From a virus: a stretch of 64,000 nucleotides of DNA. The stretch covers positions 1 through 64,000 of IMG/VR virus record IMGVR_UViG_3300038465_000068; one strand, given 5' to 3'. A program made the position numbers and the translations under genes. Below are positions 3,558 through 48,676 of this stretch, one piece after another (within the stretch, counting starts at the first letter, position 1; every line of letters begins with the position of its first letter). Below the pieces are notes generated by a model. It was given only the letters and a program-made list of their open reading frames with translations, searched no databases and was not told the DNA's origin.

Positions 3558-3611
3558 GGGCCAAAACGGCTCCGTCGCAAGAGATATAGGCCATTCTGTC
3601 CTATGGAACAA
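3558..3611 (-). promoter_or_regulatory. Operator-promoter and 5' hairpin (site 1)
   Basis: On the minus strand a -35 TTGTTC (3606-3611) and -10 TATATC (3583-3588) are separated by exactly 17 bases. The operator AGGAC-AGAAT-GGCCT fills the spacer (3588-3602). The predicted start near 3576 is followed within a few bases by a GAGCC-GTTTT-GGCCC hairpin (3558-3572). It drives the DUF932 gene. Confidence 0.75.
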
Positions 3612-4266
3612 GGGCTCCATAGTCGATTTCGTCCGCCGCCGCGTCGACCTGACCGGCATAGCCGACCTCCCGGGCTGTGGCCGCCTCGTTCTGTTGGTTC
3701 ACCAGCCACATGCTCAGGGCCTTTTCCTTGAGTGGTTCGCGGATAACCGATTCCCGGCCGGGGATCGCCAGACTAGGCACGGGCTGGTTGTCTTTGATTT
3801 TCCAATACAGCCGCTCGGCGCGCGCCCTGTCCTGCATCAGCCGGTTGAGGTCTATCGTCCCGGGCTGGAGGCCGGACAGAATTTGGCATTTCAGGGACCA
3901 CGCCACACCCTTCTGGGCCGCGTCCTTGGCGATGGGCAGGTTGCGCACCCTCTCCCAGTTTTTCCAGTTCTCGTTGGCTTTGCGGCCTTCTGTCGAGCCC
4001 TTGGTGATCCCTGCCGATGACATGCGCTCGTTTTTGTGCCGGGCCGCGAAGGTCACAAAAACGCCCGGCGATGGCCATGCCCGGCCTGTGTGGCTGTTGC
4101 GGGTCTGGGACCATGCGAACCGCAAGTCCTCGACCGAATAGCCGTCCAGCGCCTCGGCGTATTCCTTGAGGTTTTCCTTGACCAATTCCTCCGTGAACTG
4201 GCGCGGCGGCAGGTAAATCCCCTGCATCTTGGTCAGGATTTCGCGCTCGACGTCTTGCTGGCTCAT
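3601..4266 (-). CDS. Hypothetical protein, replication-associated by context
   Basis: A 221-residue soluble protein with a basic centre and no recognised motif. It overlaps the DUF1376 gene by 4 bases, so the two are co-translated. A partner of that putative replication protein is plausible by position (many phages pair such a gene with a helicase loader), but no Walker motif is visible. The downstream promoter overlaps its last codons. Confidence 0.7.
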   Translation of the reverse strand: MSQQDVEREILTKMQGIYLPPRQFTEELVKENLKEYAEALDGYSVEDLRFAWSQTRNSHTGRAWPSPGVFVTFAARHKNERMSSAGITKGSTEGRKANENWKNWERVRNLPIAKDAAQKGVAWSLKCQILSGLQPGTIDLNRLMQDRARAERLYWKIKDNQPVPSLAIPGRESVIREPLKEKALSMWLVNQQNEAATAREVGYAGQVDAAADEIDYGALVP

Positions 4267-5060
4267 TGGGATTGCTCACCTTCGGGGAAAAGTTTGACGA
4301 TCTTGCCGGTCTCGAATAGCGAGCCGCCGTTCGGCCTCACAGGCTTCGGCGCTGCCAGCGCCCCCACCGCGCCGCCGCCACGGCCGCCGCGATCCTGTTC
4401 CTTGGACAGCCAGCCGTTGATGAACCGAAGGATGCCGTTTTTCGTCTTGCGCAGCTTCGGGTTCGTGATCGACCACACCCGCATGCCGACCATCTGTTGC
4501 GTGACGTCGACCGCCGGATAGGCTGCGGCAAACTCTGCGATCAGGTGGTCTGTGACGTTGAAAAAAGAACCGTCCACGAGAGGAATGGCCACGATGACGA
4601 CAGGAGCGGGGGCCATAGGCGTGTCGGCAGAAAACAGTGAAGGAACTTCACTGTTTTGAGAGTCTGGTTCTGGTTCTAAAAGATGCTGTGGCAAAACGGT
4701 AGCATTTGCTACAGGCAGTTTGTTGCCTTTCAAAGCCTTAGCCTTACCTCCAGCACTTCCGGCGGCAGCACGAACCACAGATTTTTCGACAGCTTTTTGA
4801 TACTCGGAAGTGAGTCGCTTCTGGGAAAGCTGGCCGTCCTTGGCCTCGAAAAGCGGCATGATGTCGGGTGCGATTTTACGCCAGCGCGCGACCGACAGGC
4901 GGGTGATGCGGGCCAGCTTGGCCTCGTCGTTCGGGAGCACCCCGCCCAGCCGCCACATGGTCAGCAGCATCAGCAGGTAGGCCCCGTGCTGTTCGGTGGT
5001 GAGGTGCTGGGTGTCGCCCAGATAGTCGGCCACATAAAGCTGCATGAATGGCTGGCTCAA
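4263..5060 (-). CDS. DUF1376 protein, replication initiation type
   Basis: The N-terminal 90 residues, from PFMQLYVADYLGDT through MWRLGG to ITRLS, are a clear DUF1376 domain, a winged-helix family of phage and prophage replication regions. The C-terminal half has a linker and a segment IRVW-like to FINGW typical of DnaT/DnaD-like tails. I favour the TTG at 5060 (265 residues) because it keeps the whole domain; the first ATG (5045) would remove PF from its edge. An operator-like site lies upstream. Confidence 0.75.
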   Translation of the reverse strand: MSQPFMQLYVADYLGDTQHLTTEQHGAYLLMLLTMWRLGGVLPNDEAKLARITRLSVARWRKIAPDIMPLFEAKDGQLSQKRLTSEYQKAVEKSVVRAAAGSAGGKAKALKGNKLPVANATVLPQHLLEPEPDSQNSEVPSLFSADTPMAPAPVVIVAIPLVDGSFFNVTDHLIAEFAAAYPAVDVTQQMVGMRVWSITNPKLRKTKNGILRFINGWLSKEQDRGGRGGGAVGALAAPKPVRPNGGSLFETGKIVKLFPEGEQSQ

Positions 5061-5167
5061 GATGGTGCCCTGTCTGTTGGAGGAAATCGGCCGGGCCGAG
5101 GACAGGGCATGTGACCCGGTCCCGGCTCGATCCCTACGCATCAGCACCGTCGCGCTGACACCGTGAC

Positions 5168-5182
5168 AGGACACGGAGTCCT
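5168..5182. promoter_or_regulatory. Operator-like inverted repeat (site 2)
   Basis: AGGAC-ACGGA-GTCCT is a perfect match to the half-sites of the recurrent operator. It lies upstream of the DUF1376 gene. No good -10 is seen at the usual position, so this copy may act differently from the promoter-spacer copies. Confidence 0.5.
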
Positions 5183-5206
5183 AAAGCTGGACAAGCCGCT
5201 ACAGCT

Positions 5207-5230
5207 TGTGGTCGTTTAATTTAGACCACA
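5207..5230. repeat. 7-bp inverted repeat
   Basis: TGTGGTC and GACCACA flank an A/T-rich 10-base centre, just upstream of the DUF1376 gene. There is no T-run on either side, so it does not read as a terminator. It may be a binding site for a dimeric protein. Confidence 0.4.
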
Positions 5231-5253
5231 ATCATCCCGGCAAGTTGTTGGAA

Positions 5254-5637
5254 TTATTGGCTGCGGTCGTGCGCGCGCCGGATATGGCGGCGGAAAATAC
5301 GCTGGGCAATCGTGCCCATTTTCTCGACAAGCCTGTTGATCTTTCTGGCGATGCGCTGGGCCTTGTTCTTTGCCCGGTTGATCCGGCGCTGGCGGCGCTC
5401 CAGCCGGAGGACGGACGGGCTGCGGCTGCGATTTCCCAACGTCGGCCGCACCATGCGCTTGTAGGGCTCATTGGCCCATTCGGCGATCACGCAGGGGTGG
5501 ACGCGGCTTCCGTCGGTATGTTGGTGGGTCGCCAGCACCACGCGCACCTGTTCGGCCGCCTTGCGCGCCGAGGCTTCGGTGCCGTCATAGATGCGATTGA
5601 TGATCGGGGCGGCGATCCTGTTGGCTCTATTCGCCAT
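5254..5637 (-). CDS. Hypothetical basic protein
   Basis: A 127-residue protein whose second half is dense in Arg and Lys (RRQRRINRAKNK), consistent with nucleic-acid binding. Its start overlaps the end of the small HTH-like gene by 11 bases. No family is recognised. Confidence 0.65.
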   Translation of the reverse strand: MANRANRIAAPIINRIYDGTEASARKAAEQVRVVLATHQHTDGSRVHPCVIAEWANEPYKRMVRPTLGNRSRSPSVLRLERRQRRINRAKNKAQRIARKINRLVEKMGTIAQRIFRRHIRRAHDRSQ

Positions 5638-5797
5638 GTGCTTTCGGTCCTTTTTTCGCTTGTGGAAGGGTGATTTGGAGTTTGGTGGCGGCCTTGTAAA
5701 CGAACCCGCGCCCGCAGCCGATCACGCCCGCGATCCGCACCCCGGTCCAGTCCGGGTGCGCGCGGTGGACGGTGGCGATGTCCTGCGCGGTAATCAT
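5627..5797 (-). CDS. Small HTH-like protein, 56 residues
   Basis: Starts at an ATG that overlaps the methyltransferase stop. The sequence reads as two helices with a turn (MITAQDIATVH, then GVIGCGRGFVYKAA), which fits a compact DNA-binding helix-turn-helix. The frame, overlap and composition support a real gene. Confidence 0.6.
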   Translation of the reverse strand: MITAQDIATVHRAHPDWTGVRIAGVIGCGRGFVYKAATKLQITLPQAKKGPKAHGE

Positions 5798-6876
5798 TCG
5801 TCTTTCCCAAAAAGCGGGCCGTGATCCTCGGGCTTGTCGGCGTTCTTTGCCTTAGCCGATTCCCTCTTGCGCTCGCCAGCGCCGGACGTCAGCAGGCGCA
5901 CGCGGCGGTCGATGTCCTTGATGAATTTGGCCTCGCGCTCGATCAGGACCGAGTTGACGCCCTCGCGCCACGCGGCCTCGCCGGTCGTGCCGGTGCCCGC
6001 GAACGGGTCCAGCGTCGTCCCGCCCGGCGGCGTCACCAGCCGCACCAGATATTGCATCAGGTCCACAGGCTTGACGGTCGGATGGCCGGAGCCGAGTCGG
6101 TCATCAGCGTCGGCCTTGGCGGTGTAGAAAAACCGGGCCGCATCAGGAAAGGCCGCCTGCACTTCCTCGCTGCCATCATGGATTATATCGGCAGGCCAGC
6201 GCCCTTCCGGTCTCACAACCTGCTGCGCACCGCCGACAACGGTGGACATGCCCCACCCATCACCACCTTCGCGCCGGGACCGCTGCATCGTCCGCACCTG
6301 CGATGCGTCGGCAGACTCATCAATCGGGACGCGGCACCCCTCTATGTTGATCGCGCCCGTCCCGTGCTCGGCCAAGTTTTCCGCCACCGTGCCGATCAGA
6401 GGTTTGCGCGCCATACAGATTGGCTCCCATGCGGGCTTGAGCGCGGTGCCCCAGCCTTTCCAGTCGCCCTTTTGATTGTGAGATTTCGGGAAGCCGCTGC
6501 CGAAAGCCCACCCGATCTGGTCGCGGATTTCAAAGCCAGCGTCGTCAATCGCTATGGCCATGCGGTGATAGGTGCGCGTGCCGCTAAACGCCAGCAGGAA
6601 CGCGCCGGGCTTGAGCACGCGGTACACCTGCACCCAGAACAGTGGATCGAAGGCGGTGTCGCCATTGTCCCACTTTTCCCCCATGAAGCCGCGCGACAGG
6701 CGGGAGTATTGATGATTTTTTGGTTTCTCTTTCGCAGCGTCGGTGTTGCCGAACCGCTTGAGCGTGCTGACCAGCGCGTAGGGCGGATCGGTGACGCAGG
6801 AGTCCAGCGAATTTTCGGCGATGGTCTTGAGCGCGTCTCGGCTGTCGGCGTGGATGACTTTGATGTCGGCGGTCAC
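5794..6876 (-). CDS. DNA N6-adenine or N4-cytosine methyltransferase
   Basis: A 360-residue protein with the catalytic motif TDPPY at residues 29-33 and the AdoMet-binding motif LDPFAGTGTT near residue 300. This order (catalytic motif first) is that of beta-group amino-methyltransferases. It would methylate an exocyclic amino group in phage or host DNA. No restriction endonuclease gene is adjacent, so it looks like an orphan enzyme protecting phage DNA or setting a regulatory mark. It overlaps the RuvC-like gene by 4 bases. Confidence 0.85.
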   Translation of the reverse strand: MTADIKVIHADSRDALKTIAENSLDSCVTDPPYALVSTLKRFGNTDAAKEKPKNHQYSRLSRGFMGEKWDNGDTAFDPLFWVQVYRVLKPGAFLLAFSGTRTYHRMAIAIDDAGFEIRDQIGWAFGSGFPKSHNQKGDWKGWGTALKPAWEPICMARKPLIGTVAENLAEHGTGAINIEGCRVPIDESADASQVRTMQRSRREGGDGWGMSTVVGGAQQVVRPEGRWPADIIHDGSEEVQAAFPDAARFFYTAKADADDRLGSGHPTVKPVDLMQYLVRLVTPPGGTTLDPFAGTGTTGEAAWREGVNSVLIEREAKFIKDIDRRVRLLTSGAGERKRESAKAKNADKPEDHGPLFGKDE

Positions 6877-7469
6877 GCGGCTTTCTTTCTGGCGCGGCGG
6901 CGCGGCTTGGTGGCAAACAGCAACGGCTGCACCACGGCCAGCAGCAGCTTCCCAAGTTGGTAGGCACCGGCCAGCATGGCGTCACCAGCATGGTCATCGC
7001 AGACATACCAGTGGCGCGAGGTGCAGGCCAACATAACGCTGTCTTTCAAGGCTTTCCTGCGCTTTTCCTTGTCCTTGATCTTGCGGTCCACCTTGATGCC
7101 GAACTCGGCACGCACCGTCGGCTCATAGACCTCATAGACCGGGATATTGGCCGCGTGCGCCACCGCCATGGCCATACCGAACAGGCCGAACAGTAGCTTG
7201 ATCGGATTGATGTCGGGTGTGACGCGGCCGAGCCCCGTCTTTGTCTTGAAGGCGAACGTGCCGATGAAAGGCGTGCAGAGCACGATGCCAGTCGGCTTGT
7301 GTTCCTCGATCAGGTCTTTGAGAAAATGGCCGAGGTGGTGGCAGGTCAGGCCCAACTCCTCGACGCTACCGGGTAATTGCTTCGACCCGGTGATGGGTGC
7401 CTTCCCACGCTCCACGACGGAAAAACCTGTAGTAAATCCGAGGTCTAACGTGAGAAGGCGCTCGTCCAT
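6873..7469 (-). CDS. RuvC-like Holliday-junction resolvase
   Basis: A 198-residue RNase H-fold protein. The first catalytic strand reads LTLDLGFTTGF (Asp9), and the C-terminal acidic motif reads DDHAGDA (Asp158, Asp159, Asp163) followed by LAGAYQL. This is the phage RuvC-like pattern for cutting branched DNA before packaging. The second strand reads IVLCTPF, where a Glu is expected, so either the metal site is altered or another acid replaces it. The tail is Arg/Lys-rich. Confidence 0.75.
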   Translation of the reverse strand: MDERLLTLDLGFTTGFSVVERGKAPITGSKQLPGSVEELGLTCHHLGHFLKDLIEEHKPTGIVLCTPFIGTFAFKTKTGLGRVTPDINPIKLLFGLFGMAMAVAHAANIPVYEVYEPTVRAEFGIKVDRKIKDKEKRRKALKDSVMLACTSRHWYVCDDHAGDAMLAGAYQLGKLLLAVVQPLLFATKPRRRARKKAA

Positions 7470-8071
7470 CAGTGCGTGGTCTTGTTTTCGCCGCCGTCAG
7501 CAGCGATAGCATCGGCCGCCGCCTGCGCAACGGTTTTAATCGGAACGACCTTGTTGTCGGTGACGATCTCGGCGGTGGGCGCATCCTCCTCGACGGTGAT
7601 GTCGCCCTGCGCGATGCACCACGCGCCGAACGGGGTGTCGGAGCCGAACGATTGGCCAGCCGCGATCAGCCGGTCCATGTCGTCCTTTTCCTTTTTCTCG
7701 AACTCGGCCATCTGATCGGCCAGAGATTCCTGCGACTTGGCGATGCCGTAGAACATGCGGCTGATCTTGCGCGAGACGCCGAACTTGGCCGCCATTTCGC
7801 CATAGATGCCCTTGATGTCGGACATGAAAGCGGCGTTCTTTTCCGCCTTCTCCTCGTGCAGCTTGTCCAGCCTGACCATGAAGCCGGACAGGTCTTTCTT
7901 GCTGGGGATTTTCGTGTTGTGGCCGATGCCGACATTGTCGCCCGTGACCTCGCCGCCCTTGGCCTCGGCCGCCACCTTGCCCTTCGCCGCCTTGGCGTCT
8001 TTCTTGAGCGGCTTTTTCTTTTTGCCCGCCGCTGCCACGGCCTTCTCGGCCCCCGTTTTCTTCGCTGCCAT
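7469..8071 (-). CDS. Lys-rich DNA-binding-type protein, GapR/DUF2312-like
   Basis: The ATG at 8071 follows AGAGGA at proper spacing and gives 200 residues. The first 40 are Lys/Ala-rich. A GIGHNT motif comes next, then a helical segment (SGFMVRLDKLHEEK, then SDIKGIYGEMAAKFG) that resembles the coiled-coil of GapR/DUF2312 chromatin proteins of alphaproteobacteria. An architectural DNA role is inferred. It is divergent from the exonuclease gene across a 71-bp gap that holds an operator copy. Confidence 0.55.
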   Translation of the reverse strand: MAAKKTGAEKAVAAAGKKKKPLKKDAKAAKGKVAAEAKGGEVTGDNVGIGHNTKIPSKKDLSGFMVRLDKLHEEKAEKNAAFMSDIKGIYGEMAAKFGVSRKISRMFYGIAKSQESLADQMAEFEKKEKDDMDRLIAAGQSFGSDTPFGAWCIAQGDITVEEDAPTAEIVTDNKVVPIKTVAQAAADAIAADGGENKTTH

Positions 8072-8104
8072 GTGATCCTCTGAATATAGGTTGAGTCCCG
8101 AAAG

Positions 8105-8119
8105 CGGACATGCTGTCCT
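8105..8119. promoter_or_regulatory. Operator copy in divergent intergenic region (site 3)
   Basis: CGGAC-ATGCT-GTCCT matches 9 of 10 half-site bases. It lies between the leftward Lys-rich protein gene and the rightward exonuclease gene, so one bound dimer could affect both. A leftward -10 TATATT is seen near 8083-8088. Confidence 0.6.
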
Positions 8120-8142
8120 ATCCCAGATAAGAGGATTTTCAA

Positions 8143-9453
8143 ATGGCCCCGGCCCACCTTTTGCTGATCGACTCGTCGGGCTTCGCTTATCGCGCATATC
8201 ACGGCGGGTCGAAATTTCCCCGCTACCGGCAGTCGGACGGTGCCCCCACCGGCACCGTGATCGCCTTCCTCGAAATGATCCACAGGCTTATGAACGACGC
8301 GGCCAAAGACCCGGTCAGCCATGTCGCCGCCGTTTTCGACAATCGGGAAGCGCCCACCTTCCGGCACAAGATTTACCCGGCATACAAGGGCAACCGGACC
8401 CAGCGCGATCCCGAACTGTCGGTCCAGCTTCCGGTGATGCGTGACGCGGCGCGGGCGCTGGGCATCACCCCGGTCGAGGCTGTCGGCTATGAGGCTGACG
8501 ACGTCATGGCCACGCTGGCCCGCTGGGGTGTCGAGGCTGGGCTGCGGGTGACAATCGTGAGTTCGGACAAGGATATGGGCCAGCTTGTCGAGGACGACCG
8601 GATCGAGATTGTGGACGACCGCAAGGGCATCCGGGTGCTGGCCGCCGACGTCGAGGCCAAGTTCGGCGTGCCGCCCCATCTGGTCGCCGACGTGCAGGCA
8701 CTCTCCGGCGACATGGTCGACAATATCCCGGGCGTGCCGGGCGTGGGCTCTGGCATGGCGGGCAAGCTGATTCGCAAGCTGGGCGACTTGGACGCGGTGC
8801 TGCGCGAGGCGGCGAAATCCACCGGCTACCGCATGACGGCAGGCGCAAAGCTGTCCATCAACAACCACCGGAAAGAGATCAAGATTTACAGGAAGTTGAC
8901 CGGGCTGGCTGATGACGTGGCCTTGGGCGTCACGCTGGACGGCCTCGCTGCCGTGCCCATGAACCCGGTGCACCTCAAGGAATTGCTGCTGGCGCTGGAG
9001 GCCCCGGACGCGCTGCGCCGGATCATGTCGGGCGGCAAGATCGGCGGCACCTATGAGGCGGTGGCCCGGATCGACGTCGAGGACAGGCTGGAGTGGCACA
9101 CAAAGGCGCTGGCCGAGTATCAGGCCAAGCTGGCCCGGCCATCCCACAAGATCACCCTGCCCGCCCCGGCCGAGCCCCAGTGCGGCTGGTACAAGCGCAA
9201 GCTGGTGCAGGACGGGCCGTGGGTGCCAGCCCGCATCTGGCGGGAGGGCTTCGGCGACAAGGATGCGCTGCTGTGCTCGGTCGGTGACACCCCGCGCAAT
9301 CCGGCCGACCAGTGGGGCCGCCTGCTGTCATACCCCATCAGCGAAGTGGACTATGAGACCATGATGGCCCGGCGGGCGGCGGTGGCGAACATGCCGCTGG
9401 AGCCTGAGGCCAACCCGGGCGAGCCGATAAATTATCGGACCATCCCAGTTTAA
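8143..9453 (+). CDS. 5'-3' exonuclease, FEN/PolA N-terminal family
   Basis: A 436-residue protein. The first 290 residues carry the family motifs in order: LIDSSGFAYRAY (Asp10), AVFDNREAPTFRH with YPAYKGNR, GYEADDVMATLA, VSSDKDMGQL and ALSGDMVDNIPGVPGVG, the last being the helix-hairpin-helix region. It should degrade 5' ends and flaps in phage replication and recombination, and its product fits the RecT downstream. About 130 residues beyond the domain have no recognised motif. AAGAGGA precedes the ATG. Confidence 0.88.
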   Translation: MAPAHLLLIDSSGFAYRAYHGGSKFPRYRQSDGAPTGTVIAFLEMIHRLMNDAAKDPVSHVAAVFDNREAPTFRHKIYPAYKGNRTQRDPELSVQLPVMRDAARALGITPVEAVGYEADDVMATLARWGVEAGLRVTIVSSDKDMGQLVEDDRIEIVDDRKGIRVLAADVEAKFGVPPHLVADVQALSGDMVDNIPGVPGVGSGMAGKLIRKLGDLDAVLREAAKSTGYRMTAGAKLSINNHRKEIKIYRKLTGLADDVALGVTLDGLAAVPMNPVHLKELLLALEAPDALRRIMSGGKIGGTYEAVARIDVEDRLEWHTKALAEYQAKLARPSHKITLPAPAEPQCGWYKRKLVQDGPWVPARIWREGFGDKDALLCSVGDTPRNPADQWGRLLSYPISEVDYETMMARRAAVANMPLEPEANPGEPINYRTIPV

Positions 9454-9492
9454 TTCTTGCATCTGGTGCAGTACTGTCCATATTCACCCTAT

Positions 9493-9507
9493 AGGACAAT
9501 TCGTCCT
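9493..9507. promoter_or_regulatory. Operator copy upstream of recombination genes (site 4)
   Basis: AGGAC-AATTC-GTCCT has perfect half-sites, flanked by TAT on the left. It lies 16 bases before the start of the coiled-coil gene that precedes recT. No convincing -35/-10 pair is positioned around it, so it could block translation or elongation or serve another role. Confidence 0.6.
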
Positions 9508-9522
9508 CAAGGATAGGCCAGC

Positions 9523-10434
9523 ATGTCAGACCCCTCCCCACCCATCGGGCACAATAGCGGCGATCCCGACGCCCTCCCGATCCTGCGTCAAGCGCCGGAC
9601 CTTGAGACGCATCTGGCCGCCGTCTATGCGCCGATGCTCAAGCGCACCAAGGAATTGCTGGATAAGGGCCCGGCCAAGGCCAAGGTCTTTGATGACGAGG
9701 CGGACGGCAACGCCACCGAATTTCTGCTGGCGATCCGCGCCGAAATGGATGCGGTCAAGGTCGGCAAGAAAGACGAGAAGGCCCCATACGACACCCTAAT
9801 CGAGATCATCGACGGGTTTTTCAACACGAATGTCTGGGAGCCGTTGAAGGCGCTGGGTCTCAAGGTCAACGAGGCCAGCACCGATTACAAGGTCGGCGTG
9901 ATGCGCGCCGCCCAGATCACCACCGACATCAACGTCCGCGCCGCCCAGAAAATCAAGGATGAAGCCGCCAAAAAGGCCCGCGAGGACAAAGAGGAGGCCG
10001 ACCGCCTCGCACTCGCCGCCGCGCGCGCGCGCAAGCCGGAGAATGTCGAGCGCCTGACCGCCGCCGCCGAGGAAGCGCGCAACACCGCCAACGTCGCGCA
10101 AGCCGGGGCGATTGCCGTGGCCGTCGATCATGCCGAGGCCGTGAGCGAGGCGTCCACGTCGGCCGCCGACCTGACCCGGACGCATGGCAAGCGCGTCGGC
10201 GTTTCGTCCCTGCGCACCGCCGTCAAGGTGCTGGACCTGATCGACCGCAAGGCGCTGACCGGCGGTTACAATCTGCTGGGGCCCTACTTCACCGACGCCG
10301 CCATCCTCGCGGCCGCGCGCAAGTACGAGTCGGCCAACAAGGCCACGGTCGGCGAACACCTCGACAAAGGCACGCAGCCCATCGCCGGGCTGACCTTCGC
10401 AGAGGACTATTCCAACGTCGCCCGCAAGACATAA
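9523..10434 (+). CDS. Coiled-coil protein preceding RecT
   Basis: A 303-residue protein that begins with an IGHNSG motif near residue 8. Residues 120-220 are Ala/Glu/Lys/Arg-rich and look like a long coiled coil; the last 80 residues are a small mixed domain. It ends 8 bases before recT, and similar proteins accompany RecT in other phages, so a role with the annealing protein is inferred. The same IGHN motif occurs in the divergent gene at 7469-8071. Confidence 0.7.
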   Translation: MSDPSPPIGHNSGDPDALPILRQAPDLETHLAAVYAPMLKRTKELLDKGPAKAKVFDDEADGNATEFLLAIRAEMDAVKVGKKDEKAPYDTLIEIIDGFFNTNVWEPLKALGLKVNEASTDYKVGVMRAAQITTDINVRAAQKIKDEAAKKAREDKEEADRLALAAARARKPENVERLTAAAEEARNTANVAQAGAIAVAVDHAEAVSEASTSAADLTRTHGKRVGVSSLRTAVKVLDLIDRKALTGGYNLLGPYFTDAAILAAARKYESANKATVGEHLDKGTQPIAGLTFAEDYSNVARKT

Positions 10435-22777: not shown

Positions 22778-22778
22778 T

Positions 22779-41955: not shown

Positions 41956-42039
41956 CGGCTCATCTCCAGCGCCGTAGACACTTCATACAGCGGGACCGGC
42001 TCATAGGACATCAGAGCGTTGTCTCCAGAAGCGCGCCAT

Positions 42040-42186
42040 TCATCCGCCTTGGGCTTTAGTCCTAAAGGTCAGTCCATTTATCGGCACGCCACGCGGCTGC
42101 TCTACCCAATAGCAAACAAGAGCAGCCGCACCCGCACGCTCGTCCTGCTGCCGGGACATTTCTGAAACGTCATCGCGTAATGTCAT
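42040..42186 (-). CDS. Small protein, 48 residues
   Basis: From the ATG at 42186 behind AGGAGAG. It contains DERAGAAALVCYWVEQP, a recurring phrase in small phage proteins of this type. Function unknown. Confidence 0.5.
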   Translation of the reverse strand: MTLRDDVSEMSRQQDERAGAAALVCYWVEQPRGVPINGLTFRTKAQGG

Positions 42187-42308
42187 TGGTTTGTCTCTCC
42201 TAGCATCCACGCAAGTTCGCGTTTCCAAATGTTGCTGTGCTTTGCCTTATGCCTGACCCATTCGAGGTAGGTAACTCGGCCAAGTAAAAGCCTGATGGTG
42301 AACCACAT
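42183..42308 (-). CDS. Small basic protein, 41 residues
   Basis: From the ATG at 42308 with GGAG 10 bases before it; a longer frame upstream has no ribosome site. It has a hydrophobic start (MWFTIRLLLG) and a basic end, perhaps membrane-associated. Confidence 0.5.
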   Translation of the reverse strand: MWFTIRLLLGRVTYLEWVRHKAKHSNIWKRELAWMLGETNQ

Positions 42309-42330
42309 TGAAATTCGCTCCAAAATTGGG

Positions 42331-42352
42331 GGCGGGGCTTTGACACCCCGCC
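42331..42352 (-). terminator. Weak terminator-like hairpin
   Basis: A 7-bp stem (GGCGGGG with CCCCGCC) with an 8-base loop, followed after five bases by TTTT on the minus strand. It lies between two small genes and may attenuate the operon. Confidence 0.45.
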
Positions 42353-42358
42353 ACCCGG

Positions 42359-42508
42359 TTACTTCTGCTGTCCGATTGTCTCGGACGACTTCACGGCGCA
42401 CATGGCGTTCGCCACGTTGCACGCCGCCTGAGAGAACTTCATCGAATCGTCGGCCTTATCGGCTTTCGCTGCTTTGTCGTTCAGGGTTTTGACGTTCTCA
42501 GCACTCAT
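42359..42508 (-). CDS. Small helical protein, 49 residues
   Basis: From the ATG at 42508 behind GGAG. A single amphipathic helix (VKTLNDKAAKADKADD) is followed by a second Ala-rich helix. This short family recurs in phages; function unknown. Confidence 0.6.
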   Translation of the reverse strand: MSAENVKTLNDKAAKADKADDSMKFSQAACNVANAMCAVKSSETIGQQK

Positions 42509-42562
42509 CGGGTTCTATCTCCGATTAAAAAGCCGGGAACCGCCCGGCGCGGTAAAACGCTC

Positions 42563-43567
42563 CTATTCCTGTTCGACCGGCTGACCGTCAGCGCCCAGCA
42601 CATACCAAACTTCCGGCTTGATGCCGTTCTGCCCGACAATGCCAGCCCACACATGAATAATCGGGCCGTTCCAAACTTCGTGATAGATCAGGAACAGCGC
42701 GCAGCCTTCTTTGCCCATTGCGCGGCCCCTGTAGCCCGTCGCGCTGGCTGCGCCACTGGTGCCCGTCGCGCTGGCTGCGCCCCTGTAGCCCGTCGCGCTG
42801 GCTGCGCCACTGGTGCCCGTCGCGCTGGCTGCGCCACTGGTGCCCGTCGCGCTGGCTGCGCCACTGTCGCCCGTCGCGCTGGCTGCGCCACTGGTGCCCG
42901 TCGCGCTGGCTGCGCCCCTGTAGCCCGTCGCGCTGGCTGCGCCACTGTCGCCCGTCGCGCTGGCTGCGCCCCTGTAGCCCGTCGCGCTGGCTGCGCCACT
43001 GTCGCCCGTCGCGCTGGCTGCGCCACTGTAGCCCGTCGCGCTGGCTGCGCCACTGGTGCCCGTCGCGCTGGCTGCGCCACTGTCGCTCGTCGCGCTGGCT
43101 GCGCCCCTGTAGCCCGTCGCGCTGGCTGCGCCACTGTAGCCCGTCGCGCTGGCTGCGCCACTGGTGCCAACGGCGTGTGAACTTGTGCCTTCCGGCTTTG
43201 CGCGATCAAAGACCCATTTGACCGCAGCGGCGATGATTTCCGGCAATTTGATTTCAGCCTCAATGGTGATCTTGCCGGATGCGATCTTGGTATCGCCTTC
43301 GTGGCGAGACAGTTCACCAGACTGGACTACGCGCGCAAAGCGGCTTTCCGCTGGCGCATAGTAATTGAAAATATCCAGCGGGTGTTCGCAAGCATGGAAG
43401 CCGCTTTCGCAGGCGACAACCGGACCTTCGTGGGTGTAAGAGCCGCCAATCTCAAACTTGAAGCCGCGACAGGAAAAATCCTTGTCGAAGCCCTTGTAGC
43501 TGATGACCTGTTCGCTGGCGCTTTCCAGCAACTTTGCCTTCTGGCTGCGGTTCGGGTGGTTAATCAT
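42563..43567 (-). CDS. DUF7666-type protein with 16 tandem 9-residue repeats
   Basis: A 334-residue protein. The N-terminal 125 residues (KGFDKDFSCRGFKFEIG, then CESGFHACEHPLDIFNYY) are the DUF7666 pattern of phage and plasmid proteins. Residues 136-279 are sixteen copies of a 9-residue unit reading S/R-GAASATG-Y/D/T. A 55-residue capping segment follows. The repeats probably form a beta-solenoid. An AGGAG site precedes the ATG. The role is unknown; exchange of repeat units could vary its length or surface. Confidence 0.75.
   Translation of the reverse strand: MINHPNRSQKAKLLESASEQVISYKGFDKDFSCRGFKFEIGGSYTHEGPVVACESGFHACEHPLDIFNYYAPAESRFARVVQSGELSRHEGDTKIASGKITIEAEIKLPEIIAAAVKWVFDRAKPEGTSSHAVGTSGAASATGYSGAASATGYRGAASATSDSGAASATGTSGAASATGYSGAASATGDSGAASATGYRGAASATGDSGAASATGYRGAASATGTSGAASATGDSGAASATGTSGAASATGTSGAASATGYRGAASATGTSGAASATGYRGRAMGKEGCALFLIYHEVWNGPIIHVWAGIVGQNGIKPEVWYVLGADGQPVEQE
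42731..43162 (-). repeat. Sixteen 27-bp tandem repeats
   Basis: Near-identical units of 27 bp within the DUF7666-type gene. They vary almost only in two codons: one for Tyr, Asp or Thr, and the next for Ser or Arg. Copies of each variant are scattered, as expected from recombination or slippage between units. Since 27 is a multiple of 3 and the unit lacks stops, both strands are open in several frames here. Confidence 0.95.
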
Positions 43568-43621
43568 CGTCTTTACTCCTGCCCCAGAAAACCGCCGAGG
43601 CGCGCGGTGAGCAAACGCTCC

Positions 43622-43699
43622 TCACTTAAATAGTCTAGCTGCTAGAAAGCAGCCGATAGCACTTCCAAACAAAACACTTACAATCCAACTGAGCGTCAT
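43622..43699 (-). CDS. Possible 25-residue membrane peptide
   Basis: One hydrophobic helix (LSWIVSVLFGSAIGCFLAA) ending RLFK, started by an ATG overlapping the upstream stop. The coupling and clean composition support it, but the length leaves doubt. Confidence 0.5.
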   Translation of the reverse strand: MTLSWIVSVLFGSAIGCFLAARLFK

Positions 43700-43914
43700 C
43701 TGTTGATCCTGCAAATGCTGTCCATGACGTTTTCGTGTTCAACTTTCAGTTCGTGAAAGGCCAGGGCGTGATCGAGCGTCACCACAAGTTCATCGCGCAA
43801 TCTGGTAGGCGGCTGGTCTAACCCATGCTTCTCGAACAAGTTGACGATGCGAAGCCACAGGGGGTGTTCCGTCGCCGTCAGGGCGGTGTGCATCGTGGCA
43901 ATGGGCTCTCGCAT
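43696..43914 (-). CDS. Hypothetical protein, 72 residues
   Basis: A helical protein (WLRIVNLFEKHGLDQP, then RDELVVTLDHALAFHEL). No family is recognised. Confidence 0.6.
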   Translation of the reverse strand: MREPIATMHTALTATEHPLWLRIVNLFEKHGLDQPPTRLRDELVVTLDHALAFHELKVEHENVMDSICRINR

Positions 43915-43926
43915 GGTCGCTCCAAT

Positions 43927-44061
43927 CTATTTCGGTTTTGCTTTGAGACGGCGCAGTTCTTGCTCCACACACAGGTCGAAGGCAGGAACATCGCTCGACC
44001 CGCGCACCCGCAGTACCGTGTCGTATGCCTGTTCACGCAATGTCTTTTTCTTCTTAGGCAT
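43927..44061 (-). CDS. Small basic protein, 44 residues
   Basis: From the ATG at 44061. It begins MPKKKKTLREQAYD and ends RRLKAKPK, a basic helical protein likely to touch nucleic acid. A ribosome site AGGAGCG precedes it. Confidence 0.6.
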   Translation of the reverse strand: MPKKKKTLREQAYDTVLRVRGSSDVPAFDLCVEQELRRLKAKPK

Positions 44062-44068
44062 GGCGCTC

Positions 44069-44317
44069 CTATGATCCCAGCAGGGTGCAGAGACGGTAGT
44101 GGGGGTCCGACTTGTCGGCCTTCTCGATCACCGTCAGGCGCTGGGTGTCGGAAATAGTCAGCCGCATACCTTCCGGGCCGATCAGTTCGCGGGCAGCCGC
44201 CTCGATCTTGCGAAGGCGCACGATCTCATCGACCATGACATTGGCCTCGCCGCGAGACAGCACCAAGCATTCCCGCTTAGCGTCCCTGATGATGCGATCT
44301 ATGCTGGGCTTCGTCAT
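44069..44317 (-). CDS. Hypothetical protein, 82 residues
   Basis: Helical (SIDRIIRDAKRECLVLSR, then VDEIVRLRKIEAAAREL). No family is recognised. Confidence 0.6.
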   Translation of the reverse strand: MTKPSIDRIIRDAKRECLVLSRGEANVMVDEIVRLRKIEAAARELIGPEGMRLTISDTQRLTVIEKADKSDPHYRLCTLLGS

Positions 44318-44326
44318 TGGGGCTCG

Positions 44327-44707
44327 CTATTTGTTGGGGGTTGAATTGATGGTGATAACTTTCGCATGGGCCGGGATACCGTCCATCGGGTGCATGGCTG
44401 TCAGGCCACTTCCATGACGGATGCGCTGTACCGGGCCGACTTCGGCCTCAATCCCCGCCAGCTTGGCGAGGTAATTGTCCTTGGTGCAGCCTTCAATCTC
44501 TGTCGGCATACCGGGACACTGTTCCAAGATCGCCGCCTGCATCTGGGCCGATAGCGCCTTGTCTGAAAAGTGGTGCGTCCAGATTGGATGCCCCATGAGA
44601 TACTCAGCAGCTTCGTGCATCTTGCCGAACTCACAAAGCAGGACGCCTGTTGAGATAGAGGCGATGACGGCGGTGGGAAATACGCGGGTATCGGTGGTCA
44701 TGTTCAT
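44327..44707 (-). CDS. DUF7736-like protein
   Basis: From the ATG at 44707 (126 residues). The segment ASISTGVLLCEFGKMHEAAEYLMGHP is typical of a small phage family (DUF7736). The longer frame upstream is Cys/Arg-rich and spurious. Function unknown. Confidence 0.6.
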   Translation of the reverse strand: MNMTTDTRVFPTAVIASISTGVLLCEFGKMHEAAEYLMGHPIWTHHFSDKALSAQMQAAILEQCPGMPTEIEGCTKDNYLAKLAGIEAEVGPVQRIRHGSGLTAMHPMDGIPAHAKVITINSTPNK

Positions 44708-44715
44708 GGGCTCCC

Positions 44716-44937
44716 CTACGCTGCATCTTGTTTTGATGCTTCGACAATTCCGATAGCCGGATTTTGCCCAACAAAGTCCGCACCAGAAAACGCGCGGACA
44801 AGCTCTTTGAACTCTTCGCCTTTCCTCACGACAAAATCTCCACACTTGCCAAACGGCAAGCCTCGCGTAGGCGTGACATAGAGCGTGCAGTAAACATGCG
44901 CACCCTCGATCTGAAATCTAATTCTGAATTGGCTCAT
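44716..44937 (-). CDS. Hypothetical protein, 73 residues
   Basis: A small beta-rich protein (FRIRFQIEGAHVYCTLYV) with a helical end. No family is recognised. Confidence 0.55.
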   Translation of the reverse strand: MSQFRIRFQIEGAHVYCTLYVTPTRGLPFGKCGDFVVRKGEEFKELVRAFSGADFVGQNPAIGIVEASKQDAA

Positions 44938-44949
44938 GAAATTCGCTCC

Positions 44950-45141
44950 TTAGTTTCTAGGCCGTCCGCGACGGCCCCGCTTCAGTTCTGCTTCCACCAA
45001 TGCGCGTTCTTCCACAATAGCCGCTATGGCCTTATCTAGCTGAGCAAGTTCTCTCCGCATCCTCGTAGCCCGATCCTGCAACCGTGTGAGAGCTACGCCG
45101 TAAGATTGAAATAGCGAGAATGCGGTCTGCTTTTTCACCAA
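44950..45141 (-). CDS. Small coiled-coil protein, 63 residues
   Basis: A charged coiled coil (TRMRRELAQLDKAIAAI) with an Arg-rich end (GRRGRPRN). AGGGGAG precedes the start. Likely nucleic-acid or protein binding. Confidence 0.55.
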   Translation of the reverse strand: MVKKQTAFSLFQSYGVALTRLQDRATRMRRELAQLDKAIAAIVEERALVEAELKRGRRGRPRN

Positions 45142-45181
45142 AAGATTACGCTCCCCTACAATCTCGGTTTAATCTCAAGTT

Positions 45182-45328
45182 TCATATTCCCTGCTCCCGC
45201 AGCGTCCTTGCGTACTGTTCTGCAATGGTTTTGTTTCGGAAGTCCTCGACGCACTTGCCGTCGCGCATGACTTTCCACCAGCCGTCGTCCCGCTCGTAGT
45301 ATTGAACCGTGATTTTTGGTTTAGGCAT
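45182..45328 (-). CDS. DUF2188-like small protein, 48 residues
   Basis: From the ATG at 45328. The pattern KITVQYYERDDGWWKVM, then RNKTIAEQYARTL, is that of DUF2188, a short alpha/beta family of unknown function that sometimes accompanies stress genes. Confidence 0.6.
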   Translation of the reverse strand: MPKPKITVQYYERDDGWWKVMRDGKCVEDFRNKTIAEQYARTLREQGI

Positions 45329-45342
45329 AATCCGCTCCAATC

Positions 45343-45546
45343 CTATTCGTTGTCCGCAATGATGCGCTCTGCATCGTCGCGGCGTTGCTGGTATGGCGCG
45401 CTGGGCTTGCGCGCGAGATCATCACGCCCACTTTGAAAGCCATGCCGATACGCCTTCGATCTGTTGGCGTTAGGCTCCGGGTTGTTGGCGTCGCGCCCGT
45501 CTCTATAGCCCTCGACCATTTCATCATCGGCTCGATTCGTCATTTC
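45343..45546 (-). CDS. Small charged protein, RMF-like pattern
   Basis: From the ATG at 45546 (67 residues). The motif GYRDGRDANNPEPN, then SKAYRHGFQSGRDD, resembles ribosome modulation factor-like phage proteins, which are found in stationary-type responses. The match is weak and the role is inferred. Confidence 0.5.
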   Translation of the reverse strand, partial: EMTNRADDEMVEGYRDGRDANNPEPNANRSKAYRHGFQSGRDDLARKPSAPYQQRRDDAERIIADNE

Positions 45547-45586
45547 AATACCAATTGCCTGTCGGCGTGCCCGACGCTTTTGACAA

Positions 45587-47053
45587 TCATAGCCGATATT
45601 CCTTGTCGATAAAGCCGAGGTCGGGATCACCGCGAAAATGCCATTTGATCCAGACCTTGCGGTTTGTGTAATGCCGCCAGTGGCCGCGAACCGCGTGCAG
45701 GCGGCGGTGCCGGCGCTCGTCCTCGATGTCACCGGGCGCGACGGGCACGGGCGCGTACCGCTTGCGGTGGGCGAGGTCGACGACGTGATATTCATAGATC
45801 GGCAGCTTGCCATGGCGCTCTCTCTTGGAGTTCAGCTTGTGCGGCGCTGCGACCACCGACGTCGTGGCAACCTCGGCCTCCAGCGAAATGCAGACCGCGC
45901 GCACCTGCTTCCAGCACAGGTCGGTGATGAGTCTCTGCGTAACTAGCTTGACGTCATAAGGCGCGTTTTTCGCGTGGACAAGGTCGCCGTTCACAACCTC
46001 GTATCCGGCGAACATCACCCAGCCATCGGACTTGGTCTCGATGTAGACGATGCAGTTTGACTCGATAATGCCGTTCTCGCCGCGTGCGCCAATGGTCAGG
46101 ATGACGCGATGGCCGGAGACGCGAAATTCAAAGACGGTATTCGGATACGGGGTGTGCCATTCGCCGCCCTCGAAGTCGGTGGCGTTTTTCATGGCCGCAG
46201 CCCAATCGTGCTGCACCACAAAGATGCCGGGGTCATGGCGGCCGAGCATCACTTCGCGCACGGTGTCCAGAATTTCCGGGTTGATCGCGCCCGGCACCAC
46301 AATGCTTTCATCGGCGAACGCCTCGACCAGCTTATGATAGCCGGTCTCGGTGAGACGCTGGAGGCGCGGGTCATCACCCATCGTTGCAATCTCCAGCGCA
46401 ATGCGGTCGGCCTTCTGCTCCAGCTTTAGATATTCCTCCTCCTCGACAAGGCGACGGCGCTCGCCCTTGATTTCGCCACGGCGCTTGTCGATGCCGGTCA
46501 GCACCTCGCGCGCCATCTGGAGAAGTTCTGGCGGCGCGTGGCCGCTCTGGCTGTAGGCTTTGGCGAAACGCTGTTGCTGGTGCGGCTTCAATCCGCCGAG
46601 CACCTGTAGCCGGGTCGCCTCGCTGGCCTGCATTTCAGGCGGCAGTTCCTTCATGTACGCATTGGCGGCATCCATGGTCAGCGCGCCGTGTGACATCGCG
46701 TTGACGAGACCGCGCTTGCTTTCTAGCGACAGGCCGTCCAGCGCCGCGTCCATGCTCTTTGCAGCATCGGCCTCCATGCTGGACGGCCATCTTGCCGGGA
46801 GGGCACCGAAGTCGTTGGCGTCGAGCGCGGCGGCCGTCTGTTCGGCTACCTCGTGCGGTGGGGCTGCGGTTGCGCTATGCGGTAGCGCGGTGTCAGCCTT
46901 CTCGGCAAACGGATAGATGGCGTCGGTCTCTGCTTGCTTGGTCCCAAAGCTGGTAGCGAAGGGTGCGCCTTTCTTGGCGTGGACAGAATCGCGCGACGCC
47001 TTTGCGCCAGCTATCTCACCGCGCAACTTTCCAATGGCTTTGTCCTTTCCCAC
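45587..47053 (-). CDS. Large hypothetical protein, 488 residues
   Basis: Residues 1-230 are Ala/Glu-rich and helical. Residues 250-420 are a mixed domain. The end (RRLHAVRGHWRHYTNRKVWIKWHF) has the phrase of a small domain seen in many phage proteins with paired His and Trp. No catalytic motif is evident. It is the largest gene of the accessory cluster. Confidence 0.7.
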   Translation of the reverse strand: MGKDKAIGKLRGEIAGAKASRDSVHAKKGAPFATSFGTKQAETDAIYPFAEKADTALPHSATAAPPHEVAEQTAAALDANDFGALPARWPSSMEADAAKSMDAALDGLSLESKRGLVNAMSHGALTMDAANAYMKELPPEMQASEATRLQVLGGLKPHQQQRFAKAYSQSGHAPPELLQMAREVLTGIDKRRGEIKGERRRLVEEEEYLKLEQKADRIALEIATMGDDPRLQRLTETGYHKLVEAFADESIVVPGAINPEILDTVREVMLGRHDPGIFVVQHDWAAAMKNATDFEGGEWHTPYPNTVFEFRVSGHRVILTIGARGENGIIESNCIVYIETKSDGWVMFAGYEVVNGDLVHAKNAPYDVKLVTQRLITDLCWKQVRAVCISLEAEVATTSVVAAPHKLNSKRERHGKLPIYEYHVVDLAHRKRYAPVPVAPGDIEDERRHRRLHAVRGHWRHYTNRKVWIKWHFRGDPDLGFIDKEYRL

Positions 47054-47056
47054 CGA

Positions 47057-47599
47057 TCACCGCGCCAGCACGAGCCCAACGCCGAGCACAAAACCGCCGC
47101 TGGCATGGCCAGCGAAATTCGTTGACCTGTAGCCGCCGTCAGCGCGGATCGCCAGCGGGCCCCAGATCGACACCGATGATCCAAGTCCAGCGCCCCAGTC
47201 ATTGCTGGAGCCGTGGAAAAGCAGGCTGGCTGGCTGCGGGAAATTGTTGACCGCGATGGCGCTGTAGGCCGAGCGGCCGCCGTCGATCTGGGCAAAGGTG
47301 TCGATGCCCGGGATCAGCGTGACGTGATAGGAGGCGGTGATGGCGTACCGGGTGTCGGACAGGCTGTTTCCGTTCTGGTTGGCCGAGGTGCTGGCGAACT
47401 GGCCGCCAAGCGCGACAGGGCCGAACTGCCAGCCGGTGTCCAGCGCGATGCCGGTCAGGTCGTGCGGCACCCGGTTTGCGGTCGCGGTGTCGAGGCTGAC
47501 CGACTGAAACGCGCCGTCGACGCCAAGATAGGGCCCGGCGGCTGCGGGCGATGCGATGGCCAATAGCCCGGCCGCCAAGGCGATTTTAAGACTTTTCAT
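47057..47599 (-). CDS. Secreted outer-membrane beta-barrel protein
   Basis: A 180-residue protein. Residues 1-21 are a Sec signal peptide (LKIALAAGLLAIASPAAA, cleaved before GPY). The mature part alternates polar and aromatic residues in about eight strands (GWQFGPVALGGQF, YAITASYHV) and ends in a final strand ending VLAR. It resembles small OmpA/Lom-type porins that some prophages place in the host outer membrane. A role in blocking superinfection or phage adsorption is inferred. Its promoter is an operator-spacer type (47627-47655). Confidence 0.75.
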   Translation of the reverse strand: MKSLKIALAAGLLAIASPAAAGPYLGVDGAFQSVSLDTATANRVPHDLTGIALDTGWQFGPVALGGQFASTSANQNGNSLSDTRYAITASYHVTLIPGIDTFAQIDGGRSAYSAIAVNNFPQPASLLFHGSSNDWGAGLGSSVSIWGPLAIRADGGYRSTNFAGHASGGFVLGVGLVLAR

Positions 47600-47626
47600 G
47601 GTGATTCCTTCCGTTGTTCATTGTGA

Positions 47627-47655
47627 GATATAGGACGGCCTGTCCTATTTGTCAT
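47627..47655 (-). promoter_or_regulatory. Operator-promoter for the beta-barrel gene (site 6)
   Basis: -35 ATGACA (47650-47655) and -10 TATATC (47627-47632) are 17 bases apart, and AGGAC-AGGCC-GTCCT fills the spacer (47632-47646). No 5' hairpin follows, unlike some other sites. Confidence 0.75.
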
Positions 47656-47695
47656 CAGGCGGGTCGGCCTCGGTGGTCAGGTTGAACTTGGCCAT
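47645..47695 (-). CDS. Possible 16-residue peptide
   Basis: A tiny frame from an ATG overlapping the upstream stop; it ends inside the operator. It may be chance. Confidence 0.2.
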   Translation of the reverse strand: MAKFNLTTEADPPDDK

Positions 47696-47907
47696 CAGGC
47701 ACCGCCTTTCAGCACGTCGTCCAGCGTCGAGGTCACATAGACCGTCTCGCTGGCGATGACGTGATAGTGCCGGTCGGGCTGGCCGTTCGCCACGGCGGCG
47801 GCGCGCAGGTCATCTGCCGCCGCCTTGGCTTGGGAAAAGTGCAAGTTTCTCGAAACATGCGGGATCGCGGTGCCGTCCGCTTGGATAACTGTGTGGGTCT
47901 TGTTCAT
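47695..47907 (-). CDS. Hypothetical protein, 70 residues
   Basis: Alpha/beta (VIQADGTAIPHVSRNLHF, then YHVIASETVYVTSTLDD). AGGAGAGA precedes the ATG. It is the gene directly behind site 7, with no recognised family. Confidence 0.6.
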   Translation of the reverse strand: MNKTHTVIQADGTAIPHVSRNLHFSQAKAAADDLRAAAVANGQPDRHYHVIASETVYVTSTLDDVLKGGA

Positions 47908-47925
47908 TCGTCTCTCCTCGGTGGC

Positions 47926-47975
47926 GGCCCAACACGGGCCAAGGTGGATATAGGACAGAATGTCCTACGGTTCAA
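47926..47975 (-). promoter_or_regulatory. Operator-promoter and 5' hairpin (site 7)
   Basis: -35 TTGAAC (47970-47975) and -10 TATATC (47947-47952) flank a 17-base spacer holding AGGAC-ATTCT-GTCCT (47952-47966). A GGCCC-GTGTT-GGGCC hairpin (47926-47940) starts at the predicted transcript start. Confidence 0.8.
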
Positions 47976-48217
47976 GCCATGCCCAGCAACTCGCGCAGGG
48001 CGTCATAGATCGGGTCTCCGGTCGTGTGGACCTTGGTGGCGGCGCATTGCCGGGCGTTTTCCTCGGCCCGGGCGAAGCTATCCTCGCCAACGCCGCACCC
48101 CGGGCAGACATGCGCGGCGTCGACGGTTTCGGCCGTGATGTCGCGCCCGTCATGGCTCCAGATATGCCAGCACTCCGGGCAAACGTGGTGGTGGAAGCCA
48201 TCGCGCAGGCTGCTCAT
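47972..48217 (-). CDS. Zinc-ribbon protein
   Basis: An 81-residue protein with CPECWHIWSHDG and CPGCGVGEDSF, two CxxC knuckles about 26 residues apart. It is a small zinc-ribbon protein, probably DNA or RNA binding. Confidence 0.65.
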   Translation of the reverse strand: MSSLRDGFHHHVCPECWHIWSHDGRDITAETVDAAHVCPGCGVGEDSFARAEENARQCAATKVHTTGDPIYDALRELLGMA

Positions 48218-48218
48218 A

Positions 48219-48395
48219 TCAGCACCCCGTCACGGAATCATACGTCACCTGACGCTCGGTCTTGGCGCGCGCATAGGCGGCAACCTTTTCGGCCAGCGGC
48301 AGGTTTTTGGCGCGGGCGCGGGCGCGGGCATACCGTCTATCGGCGGCGCGCAGGATCGCGGCAGCATCAGGGTCGTTTGTCAGCCAGCCGATCAC
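48219..48395 (-). CDS. Small basic protein, 58 residues
   Basis: A GTG start overlaps the stop of the upstream membrane peptide (GTGA), and this is preferred over a longer frame that would run through the promoter. It is helical and basic (RRYARARARAKNL). Confidence 0.6.
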   Translation of the reverse strand: MIGWLTNDPDAAAILRAADRRYARARARAKNLPLAEKVAAYARAKTERQVTYDSVTGC

Positions 48396-48487
48396 AGGTG
48401 GCCTCCAGCGATGATCCCCGCCACGATGAACGTGGCGGCGGCGGCGAAGTGAAGCGCCAGGATGGGGAAGGTGGCTGTTTTCGACAT
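48392..48487 (-). CDS. Membrane peptide, 31 residues
   Basis: Starts at an ATG behind GGAGAGAC, the first gene after the site 8 promoter and hairpin. It has one hydrophobic helix (LALHFAAAATFIVAGIIAGG). Likely an inner-membrane small protein of host-takeover type. Confidence 0.65.
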   Translation of the reverse strand: MSKTATFPILALHFAAAATFIVAGIIAGGHL

Positions 48488-48506
48488 TTTGTCTCTCCGG
48501 TTGAGC

Positions 48507-48561
48507 GGGCCAAAACGGCCCTTGACCCAACTGATATAGGACAGTCCGTCCTATCCTTCAA
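48507..48561 (-). promoter_or_regulatory. Operator-promoter and 5' hairpin (site 8)
   Basis: -35 TTGAAG (48556-48561) and -10 TATATC (48533-48538) flank a 17-base spacer with AGGAC-GGACT-GTCCT. The hairpin GGGCC-GTTTT-GGCCC (48507-48521) lies just after the predicted start. It is divergent from site 9. Confidence 0.85.
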
Positions 48562-48620
48562 TGGCTATTTTTACGAAATGTTAGTGCCGTTTTTGGCGGA
48601 ATACCGCCTTTTCTTGGCTC

Positions 48621-48676
48621 TTGAATAGGACGGCCTGTCCTACTATATTTGACCTGTAAGAGGCCCGTTCTGGGCC
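48621..48676 (+). promoter_or_regulatory. Operator-promoter and 5' hairpin, rightward (site 9)
   Basis: -35 TTGAAT (48621-48626) and -10 TATATT (48644-48649) are exactly 17 bases apart, and AGGAC-GGCCT-GTCCT (48627-48641) fills the spacer. The hairpin GGCCC-GTTCT-GGGCC (48662-48676) starts about 6 bases after the predicted transcript start. It drives the rightward operon to 50545. Confidence 0.85.

What the first reader, a model, noticed from the sequence alone, without database searches (positions are those of the whole stretch)
3558..48676. Operator-driven transcripts share a 5'-terminal hairpin
At sites 1, 7, 8 and 9 a hairpin with stem G-G/A-GCC and loop GTTTT, GTGTT or GTTCT begins within a few bases of the predicted start, followed by a GGAG-type ribosome site. 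Such a leader can protect mRNA from 5'-dependent decay or be a regulator target.
Basis: partly seen in the sequence, partly recalled or inferred. Interest (0 to 1): 0.7.

Follow-up and report, generated by a model that had tools for sequence, protein, structure and literature searches.

The report
Shared phage mRNA leader hairpin
Several phage genes with operator-containing promoters begin their mRNAs with the same small GC-rich hairpin just before the ribosome-binding site, and the same leader occurs in other phages that carry different operator sequences, so it looks like a portable mRNA control element whose job still has to be tested.

Summary
Four promoters in this phage record (operator ATAGGNC-N5-GNCCTAT lying in the 17-nt spacer between -35 and -10) are followed by a 5-bp hairpin GGSCC-N5-GGSCC, then GCC, then GGAG 8-10 nt later. 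Site 1 has a one-nt bulge. The strict dyad occurs three times in 64 kb, each time at one of these promoters. A model built only from other phages ranks the four sites 1-4 in the window. Relative G001 keeps the hairpin at all four counterpart promoters although loops change. The middle base pair flips C-G/G-C between leaders while staying paired. The leader also occurs in five other phage groups with different spacer sequences, so it is separable from the operator. It was not found in 385 alphaproteobacterial genomes. Other operator promoters lack it; one of those reads a phage tmRNA. Predicted hairpin start is about +1 to +6, so 5'-end protection is possible but unproven; folding gives no support for a 'keeps the Shine-Dalgarno open' role. 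Best reading: an mRNA 5' leader stem-loop with a stabilising role; rivals are an RNA-binding-protein target, a DNA dyad, or a promoter-escape element.

The parts
3606..3611 (-). -35 TTGTTC, site 1 promoter
   Evidence: 17-nt spacing to TATATC
3586..3604 (.). operator, site 1, in the promoter spacer
   Evidence: exact match of ATAGGNC-N5-GNCCTAT
3583..3588 (-). -10 TATATC, site 1
3558..3573 (-). leader hairpin site 1, GG(A)GCC-GTTTT-GGCCC, one-nt bulge
   Evidence: fold -8.8 kcal/mol; kept in G001 with U bulge
3544..3547 (-). GGAG ribosome site, site 1; gene starts at 3534 (DUF932 / phrog_1362)
47970..47975 (-). -35 TTGAAC, site 7
47950..47968 (.). operator, site 7
   Evidence: one mismatch
47947..47952 (-). 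-10 TATATC, site 7
47926..47940 (-). leader hairpin site 7, GGCCC-GTGTT-GGGCC
   Evidence: fold -10.8 kcal/mol; model hits
47914..47917 (-). GGAG ribosome site, site 7; 70-aa gene starts at 47907
48556..48561 (-). -35 TTGAAG, site 8
48536..48554 (.). operator, site 8
   Evidence: exact match
48533..48538 (-). -10 TATATC, site 8
48507..48521 (-). leader hairpin site 8, GGGCC-GTTTT-GGCCC
   Evidence: fold -10.5 kcal/mol; model hits
48495..48498 (-). GGAG ribosome site, site 8; 31-aa gene starts at 48487
48621..48626 (+). -35 TTGAAT, site 9
48625..48643 (.). operator, site 9
   Evidence: one mismatch
48644..48649 (+). -10 TATATT, site 9
48662..48676 (+). leader hairpin site 9, GGCCC-GTTCT-GGGCC
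   Evidence: fold -10.5 kcal/mol; model hits
48685..48688 (+). GGAG ribosome site, site 9; 134-aa gene starts at 48696
47630..47648 (.). operator of a promoter (-) without hairpin, 180-aa gene at 47599
   Evidence: no hairpin here or in G001
58603..58621 (.). operator shared by two divergent promoters without the hairpin
60165..60183 (.). operator of a promoter (-) without hairpin that reads a phage tmRNA

Best explanation
A short mRNA leader module. A sigma70-type promoter with a repressor operator in its spacer starts a transcript whose first element is a 5-bp GC stem-loop, followed after 8-10 nt by a strong purine ribosome site. Shown by sequence: the anatomy, its recurrence at four promoters and in other phages, and conserved pairing. 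Inferred: that the palindrome is a repressor operator; that once it is free the transcript starts at or a few nt before the hairpin; and that the hairpin, together with the bound ribosome, slows 5'-end-dependent decay of these short mRNAs, whatever gene follows.
For: Hairpin at four promoters here and at the four counterpart promoters in G001. In G001 the reading frames after the site 8 and 9 counterparts differ in sequence and length from those here, so the leader goes with the promoter, not the gene. Same leader in L057 (two copies), L058, L095/L099, L097, L100, with various spacer sequences. Middle pair C-G in 5 and G-C in 4 of nine aligned leaders, always paired, 4 of 500 shuffles as good. 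Loops of 4-6 nt and a bulge tolerated; stems -8.8 to -12.6 kcal/mol. Hairpin-to-GGAG distance is narrow (7-11 nt, sd 1.0). One operator promoter without the hairpin reads a tmRNA, not an mRNA. Precedent: a hairpin at or near the 5' end, or a ribosome site, can stabilise long downstream regions in Bacillus, and a 5' hairpin is known to impede RppH in E. coli (review PMC3997798).
Against: Start sites are only predicted; at sites 8 and 9 about 5 unpaired nt would precede the stem, enough for RppH. Other operator promoters that drive protein genes (47630, both directions of 58603) lack the hairpin. The spacing to the -10 is looser (sd 1.7-2.6) than that to GGAG, which fits a ribosome-linked role as well. 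Predicted Shine-Dalgarno accessibility does not change when the 5' arm is removed (0.26 against 0.25). Only one of five base pairs varies, and some leaders are related copies.
Confidence: 0.42

Rival explanations
1. The hairpin is a binding site for a phage or host RNA-binding protein or small RNA that tunes translation of this gene set after the repressor is released.
For: Repeated, near-identical stem with a conserved GCC 3' flank and a fixed 8-10 nt distance to GGAG; only a subset of operator promoters has it.
Against: The loop, the usual recognition part, is not conserved (GTTTT, CCAT, TTCCT, ACGGA, ATTTC, AGACG); no candidate protein identified.
Confidence: 0.2
2. It is a DNA dyad: a second protein binds GGSCC-N5-GGSCC around +1 to +20 and controls transcription.
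For: An inverted repeat keeps complementarity at the DNA level too; in cluster K mycobacteriophages inverted repeats upstream of starts were judged more likely DNA sites (PMC3203893).
Against: Arm spacing varies 4-6 and one arm carries an inserted base, unfavourable for a fixed dimer; arms are GGGCC in some and GGCCC in other leaders of one genome, and a protein blind to the middle base gives no reason for it to stay complementary (12 of 12 leaders with 5-nt loops against 6 of 12 background dyads, P 0.014; but chance genome hits parsed with 4-6 nt loops were complementary in 17 of 21, so this argument is moderate).
Confidence: 0.13
3. It acts at transcription: the nascent hairpin behind RNA polymerase aids promoter escape, prevents pausing or serves an antitermination factor (nut/boxB-like).
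For: 5-bp stem with 5-nt loop at a roughly fixed place close to the start, like boxB in size.
Against: Loops are not GNRA-like and there is no room for a boxA between start and stem; one tmRNA promoter of the same set does without it.
Confidence: 0.1
4. It has no role of its own: copies of one ancestral promoter-leader cassette spread by recombination and decay slowly.
For: Sites 7, 8, 9 lie within 800 bp and share flanking GC and GGAGAGA; other promoters of the set did not receive it.
Against: Loops and spacers have diverged widely while stem pairing persisted, including paired flips between counterpart sites.
Confidence: 0.1

Closest known systems
5'-terminal stem-loop mRNA stabilisers (ompA, papA in E. 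coli; aprE in Bacillus; cited in review PMC3997798)
   Same: Stem-loop at or near the 5' end followed by a strong ribosome site.
   Different: Here one short GGSCC stem is reused at several operator promoters of a phage and in other phages; stabilisation not tested.
SAS/ESAS of cluster K mycobacteriophages (PMC3203893) and of cluster EF Microbacterium phages (PMC7302621)
   Same: Repeated start-associated element in phage intergenic regions, often with different genes in relatives, rare or absent in host genomes.
   Different: SAS overlaps the ribosome site itself; cluster K ESAS repeats do not support RNA pairing, whereas this stem does.
18-bp inverted repeats 14-22 bp upstream of starts in cluster EG Microbacterium phages (PMC7302621)
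   Same: Short inverted repeat before the start codon of several genes.
   Different: One fixed sequence (GATCAACCNNGGTTGATC) with a 2-nt centre; here loop and middle pair vary.
T7 late mRNA 5' hairpins and lambda boxB (from general knowledge)
   Same: Short stem-loop in the 5' part of a phage transcript; boxB has the same 5-bp/5-nt size.
   Different: T7 stems follow a phage polymerase promoter; boxB needs a GNRA-like loop and boxA, neither seen here.

Membership tests
5'-terminal stem-loop mRNA stabiliser | stable stem within about 0-4 nt of the mRNA 5' end | tested here: inconclusive
   predicted start 7 nt after the -10 puts the stem at about +1 (site 7) to +6 (site 9); L097 further; no mapped 5' ends
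5'-terminal stem-loop mRNA stabiliser | ribosome site closely downstream | tested here: met
   GGAG 7-11 nt after the stem in 14 of 14 leaders (most were found with patterns that require GGAG, the four window sites and G001 site 1 were not)
5'-terminal stem-loop mRNA stabiliser | longer mRNA half-life | not testable with these tools
   needs RNA measurements
SAS/ESAS element | 13-bp sequence GGGATAGGAGCCC (or EF variant GGGAAAGGACCCC) at the ribosome site | tested here: not met
   leader alignment shows no such 13-mer; GGAG with variable flanks
lambda nut site / boxB | 5-bp stem with GNRA-like pentaloop | tested here: not met
   loops GTTTT, GTGTT, GTTCT, TTCCT, ACGGA, ATTTC, AGACG
lambda nut site / boxB | boxA upstream of boxB in the transcript | tested here: not met
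   only about 0-6 nt (10 in L097) between predicted start and stem
operator-controlled sigma70 promoter (repressor regulon) | operator between -35 and -10 at several promoters | tested here: met
   17-nt spacers occupied by the operator at sites 1, 7, 8, 9, 47630, 58603(-), 60165
operator-controlled sigma70 promoter (repressor regulon) | a cognate repressor | not tested
   no repressor gene was identified among the proteins scanned; not searched exhaustively
described Rfam family | match at gathering score | tested here: not met
   no Rfam match at the leaders

The most novel reading that the evidence does not exclude
A phage RNA regulon: one hairpin, carried by several phages with different operator systems, is recognised by a shared host or phage RNA-binding factor that switches a set of mRNAs on or off after transcription, so that operator and leader evolve as interchangeable modules.
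Probability: 0.15. Interest if true: 0.72.

Novelty: new variant of a known kind. Interest (0 to 1): 0.45.

Why it matters
It defines a compact leader motif that recurs in several phage groups, separable from the operator, with a clear prediction that paired mutations can test. If it stabilises mRNA it is a portable 5' element for GC-rich bacteria; if it is a target, it marks a post-transcriptional layer on top of a phage repressor regulon.

Tried and rejected
Close DNA relatives of the first 25 kb in GenBank phages: none. Relatives of the site 9 protein in viral contigs: none. First exact operator-plus-hairpin viral scan: none, pattern too strict. Genome-wide pattern scan of 84,980 species: 21 hits, none judged to have this promoter-leader layout, many apparently inside coding sequence. 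385 alphaproteobacterial genomes: 2 hits, against 8 for the reversed control pattern. Distant DUF932 relatives (39-49% identity) show no such leader upstream. 'Hairpin keeps the Shine-Dalgarno open': folding shows no difference. boxB/nut: loop and boxA fail. Hits L096/L098, L109/L113, L110, L111 rejected (unpaired arms, no promoter-to-start layout); L107 left open. RNA-model search in large genomes scores only 150 of about 1300-2500 candidates, so its zeros there are weak.

Full report
What was claimed. Four operator-driven promoters were said to share a hairpin at the start of their transcripts, followed by a GGAG ribosome site.

The window is 64 kb of a 67,052-base virus record. The operator ATAGGNC-N5-GNCCTAT has five exact copies and four with one mismatch. 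At sites 3586(-), 47630(-), 47950(-), 48536(-), 48625(+), 58603(-) and 60165(-) it occupies a 17-nt spacer between a TTG-type -35 (ATGACA at 47630) and a TATAT -10; 58603 also has a promoter-like layout with a 16-nt spacer in the other direction. Downstream of four of these, at 6-12 nt after the -10, lies GGSCC-N5-GGSCC, then GCC (GCT at site 8), then GGAG 8-10 nt after the stem and ATG 6-9 nt after that. Site 1 carries an extra unpaired A in the 5' arm; the stem still has five or six pairs.

More than chance. The dyad occurs three times in the whole window, each at one of these promoters; a random position meets it in the same offset range with probability 0.0006. A scan for -35, -10, any GC-only stem, ribosome site and start over the window and the fetched loci returned the three unbulged sites in the window, the counterpart sites in G001, L057 and L058, and three other hits (L012, L070, L082) with unrelated stems. 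A covariance model trained only on other phages' leaders ranks the four window sites 1 to 4, although site 1 on its own is not significant (E 0.48).

Relatives. G001 (IMGVR_UViG_3300029911_000024, 80% identical in the site 1 protein) keeps the hairpin at all four counterpart promoters. The loops differ: GTTTT/ATTCT, GTGTT/CGATCT, GTTTT/CCAT, GTTCT/TTCCT. The middle pair is C-G at sites 7 and 9 and G-C at their counterparts. The site 1 bulge is A here, U there. The 47630 and 58603 promoters, which have no hairpin here, lack it in G001 too.

Beyond close relatives. Pattern scans of viral contigs gave the same leader in L057 (two copies), L058, L095/L099, L097 and L100, each with a promoter-like layout, a ribosome site and a start codon; L097 has the weakest promoter match. 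Their spacers differ; L057 has a palindrome GATGCTGATCAGCATC at one of its two promoters and a related sequence at the other, in place of the operator. So hairpin and operator are separate modules. Scans of bacterial genomes gave only chance-like hits, so the element looks phage-specific within what was searched.

RNA or DNA. On nine equal-length leaders the middle pair is C-G five times and G-C four times, always paired. Loop lengths of 4-6 nt and the bulge fit an RNA stem better than a DNA dyad read by a dimer. This support is moderate: four pairs never vary, some leaders are related, and background dyads are often complementary too.

Function. Predicted starts put the stem at about +1 to +6. 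That is compatible with a 5'-end protecting hairpin, and the stem-plus-ribosome-site layout is that of known stabilisers (PMC3997798), but the unpaired tail at sites 8 and 9 could still be attacked. The tighter spacing is to GGAG, not to the -10, which also fits a ribosome- or protein-linked role. Removing the 5' arm in silico does not change predicted ribosome-site accessibility, so an insulating role has no support from folding. One operator promoter that lacks the hairpin reads a tmRNA, consistent with a role on mRNA, though the hairpin-less promoters at 47630 and 58603 drive protein genes.

Known things. Start-associated repeats of cluster K and EF phages and the inverted repeats of cluster EG are the nearest phage precedents; none has this sequence, and the cluster K ESAS repeats do not support RNA pairing. 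No Rfam family matches the leaders. Six literature searches that ran showed no description of this leader; the library held is partial.

Verdict. A real, conserved, portable leader hairpin, probably acting as RNA; mechanism open, mRNA stabilisation most likely.

Noticed in passing
window 59851-60194 (-): A phage-encoded permuted alphaproteobacterial tmRNA (RF01849 E 1.8e-18, RF04321 E 2e-11), with a tag ending NDNEEVRIAA, downstream of the operator promoter at 60165; also in G001 (L051 1151-1530, E 3.4e-22). ARAGORN did not report it. It points to an alphaproteobacterial host and suggests that the phage's trans-translation RNA is under the same operator control.
   Followed up: partly
window 58603-58621: One operator serves two back-to-back promoters (16- and 17-nt spacers) for two small divergent genes; same layout in G001.
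   Followed up: partly
window 9491-9531: Two operator-like sequences in tandem, the second overlapping the start codon of the gene at 9523; a similar pair in G001 (L048).
   Followed up: no
L057 1850-1888 and 2825-2861: GATGCTGATCAGCATC palindrome in the promoter spacer: possibly the operator of another phage repressor used with the same leader.
   Followed up: partly
window 42644-43264: 27-bp tandem repeats in a tail-fibre-like gene.
   Followed up: no
L107 3387-3430: Possible further leader (GGCCCACCACACAGGAG, close to L095) in a 105-kb contig without a clear -35.
   Followed up: no
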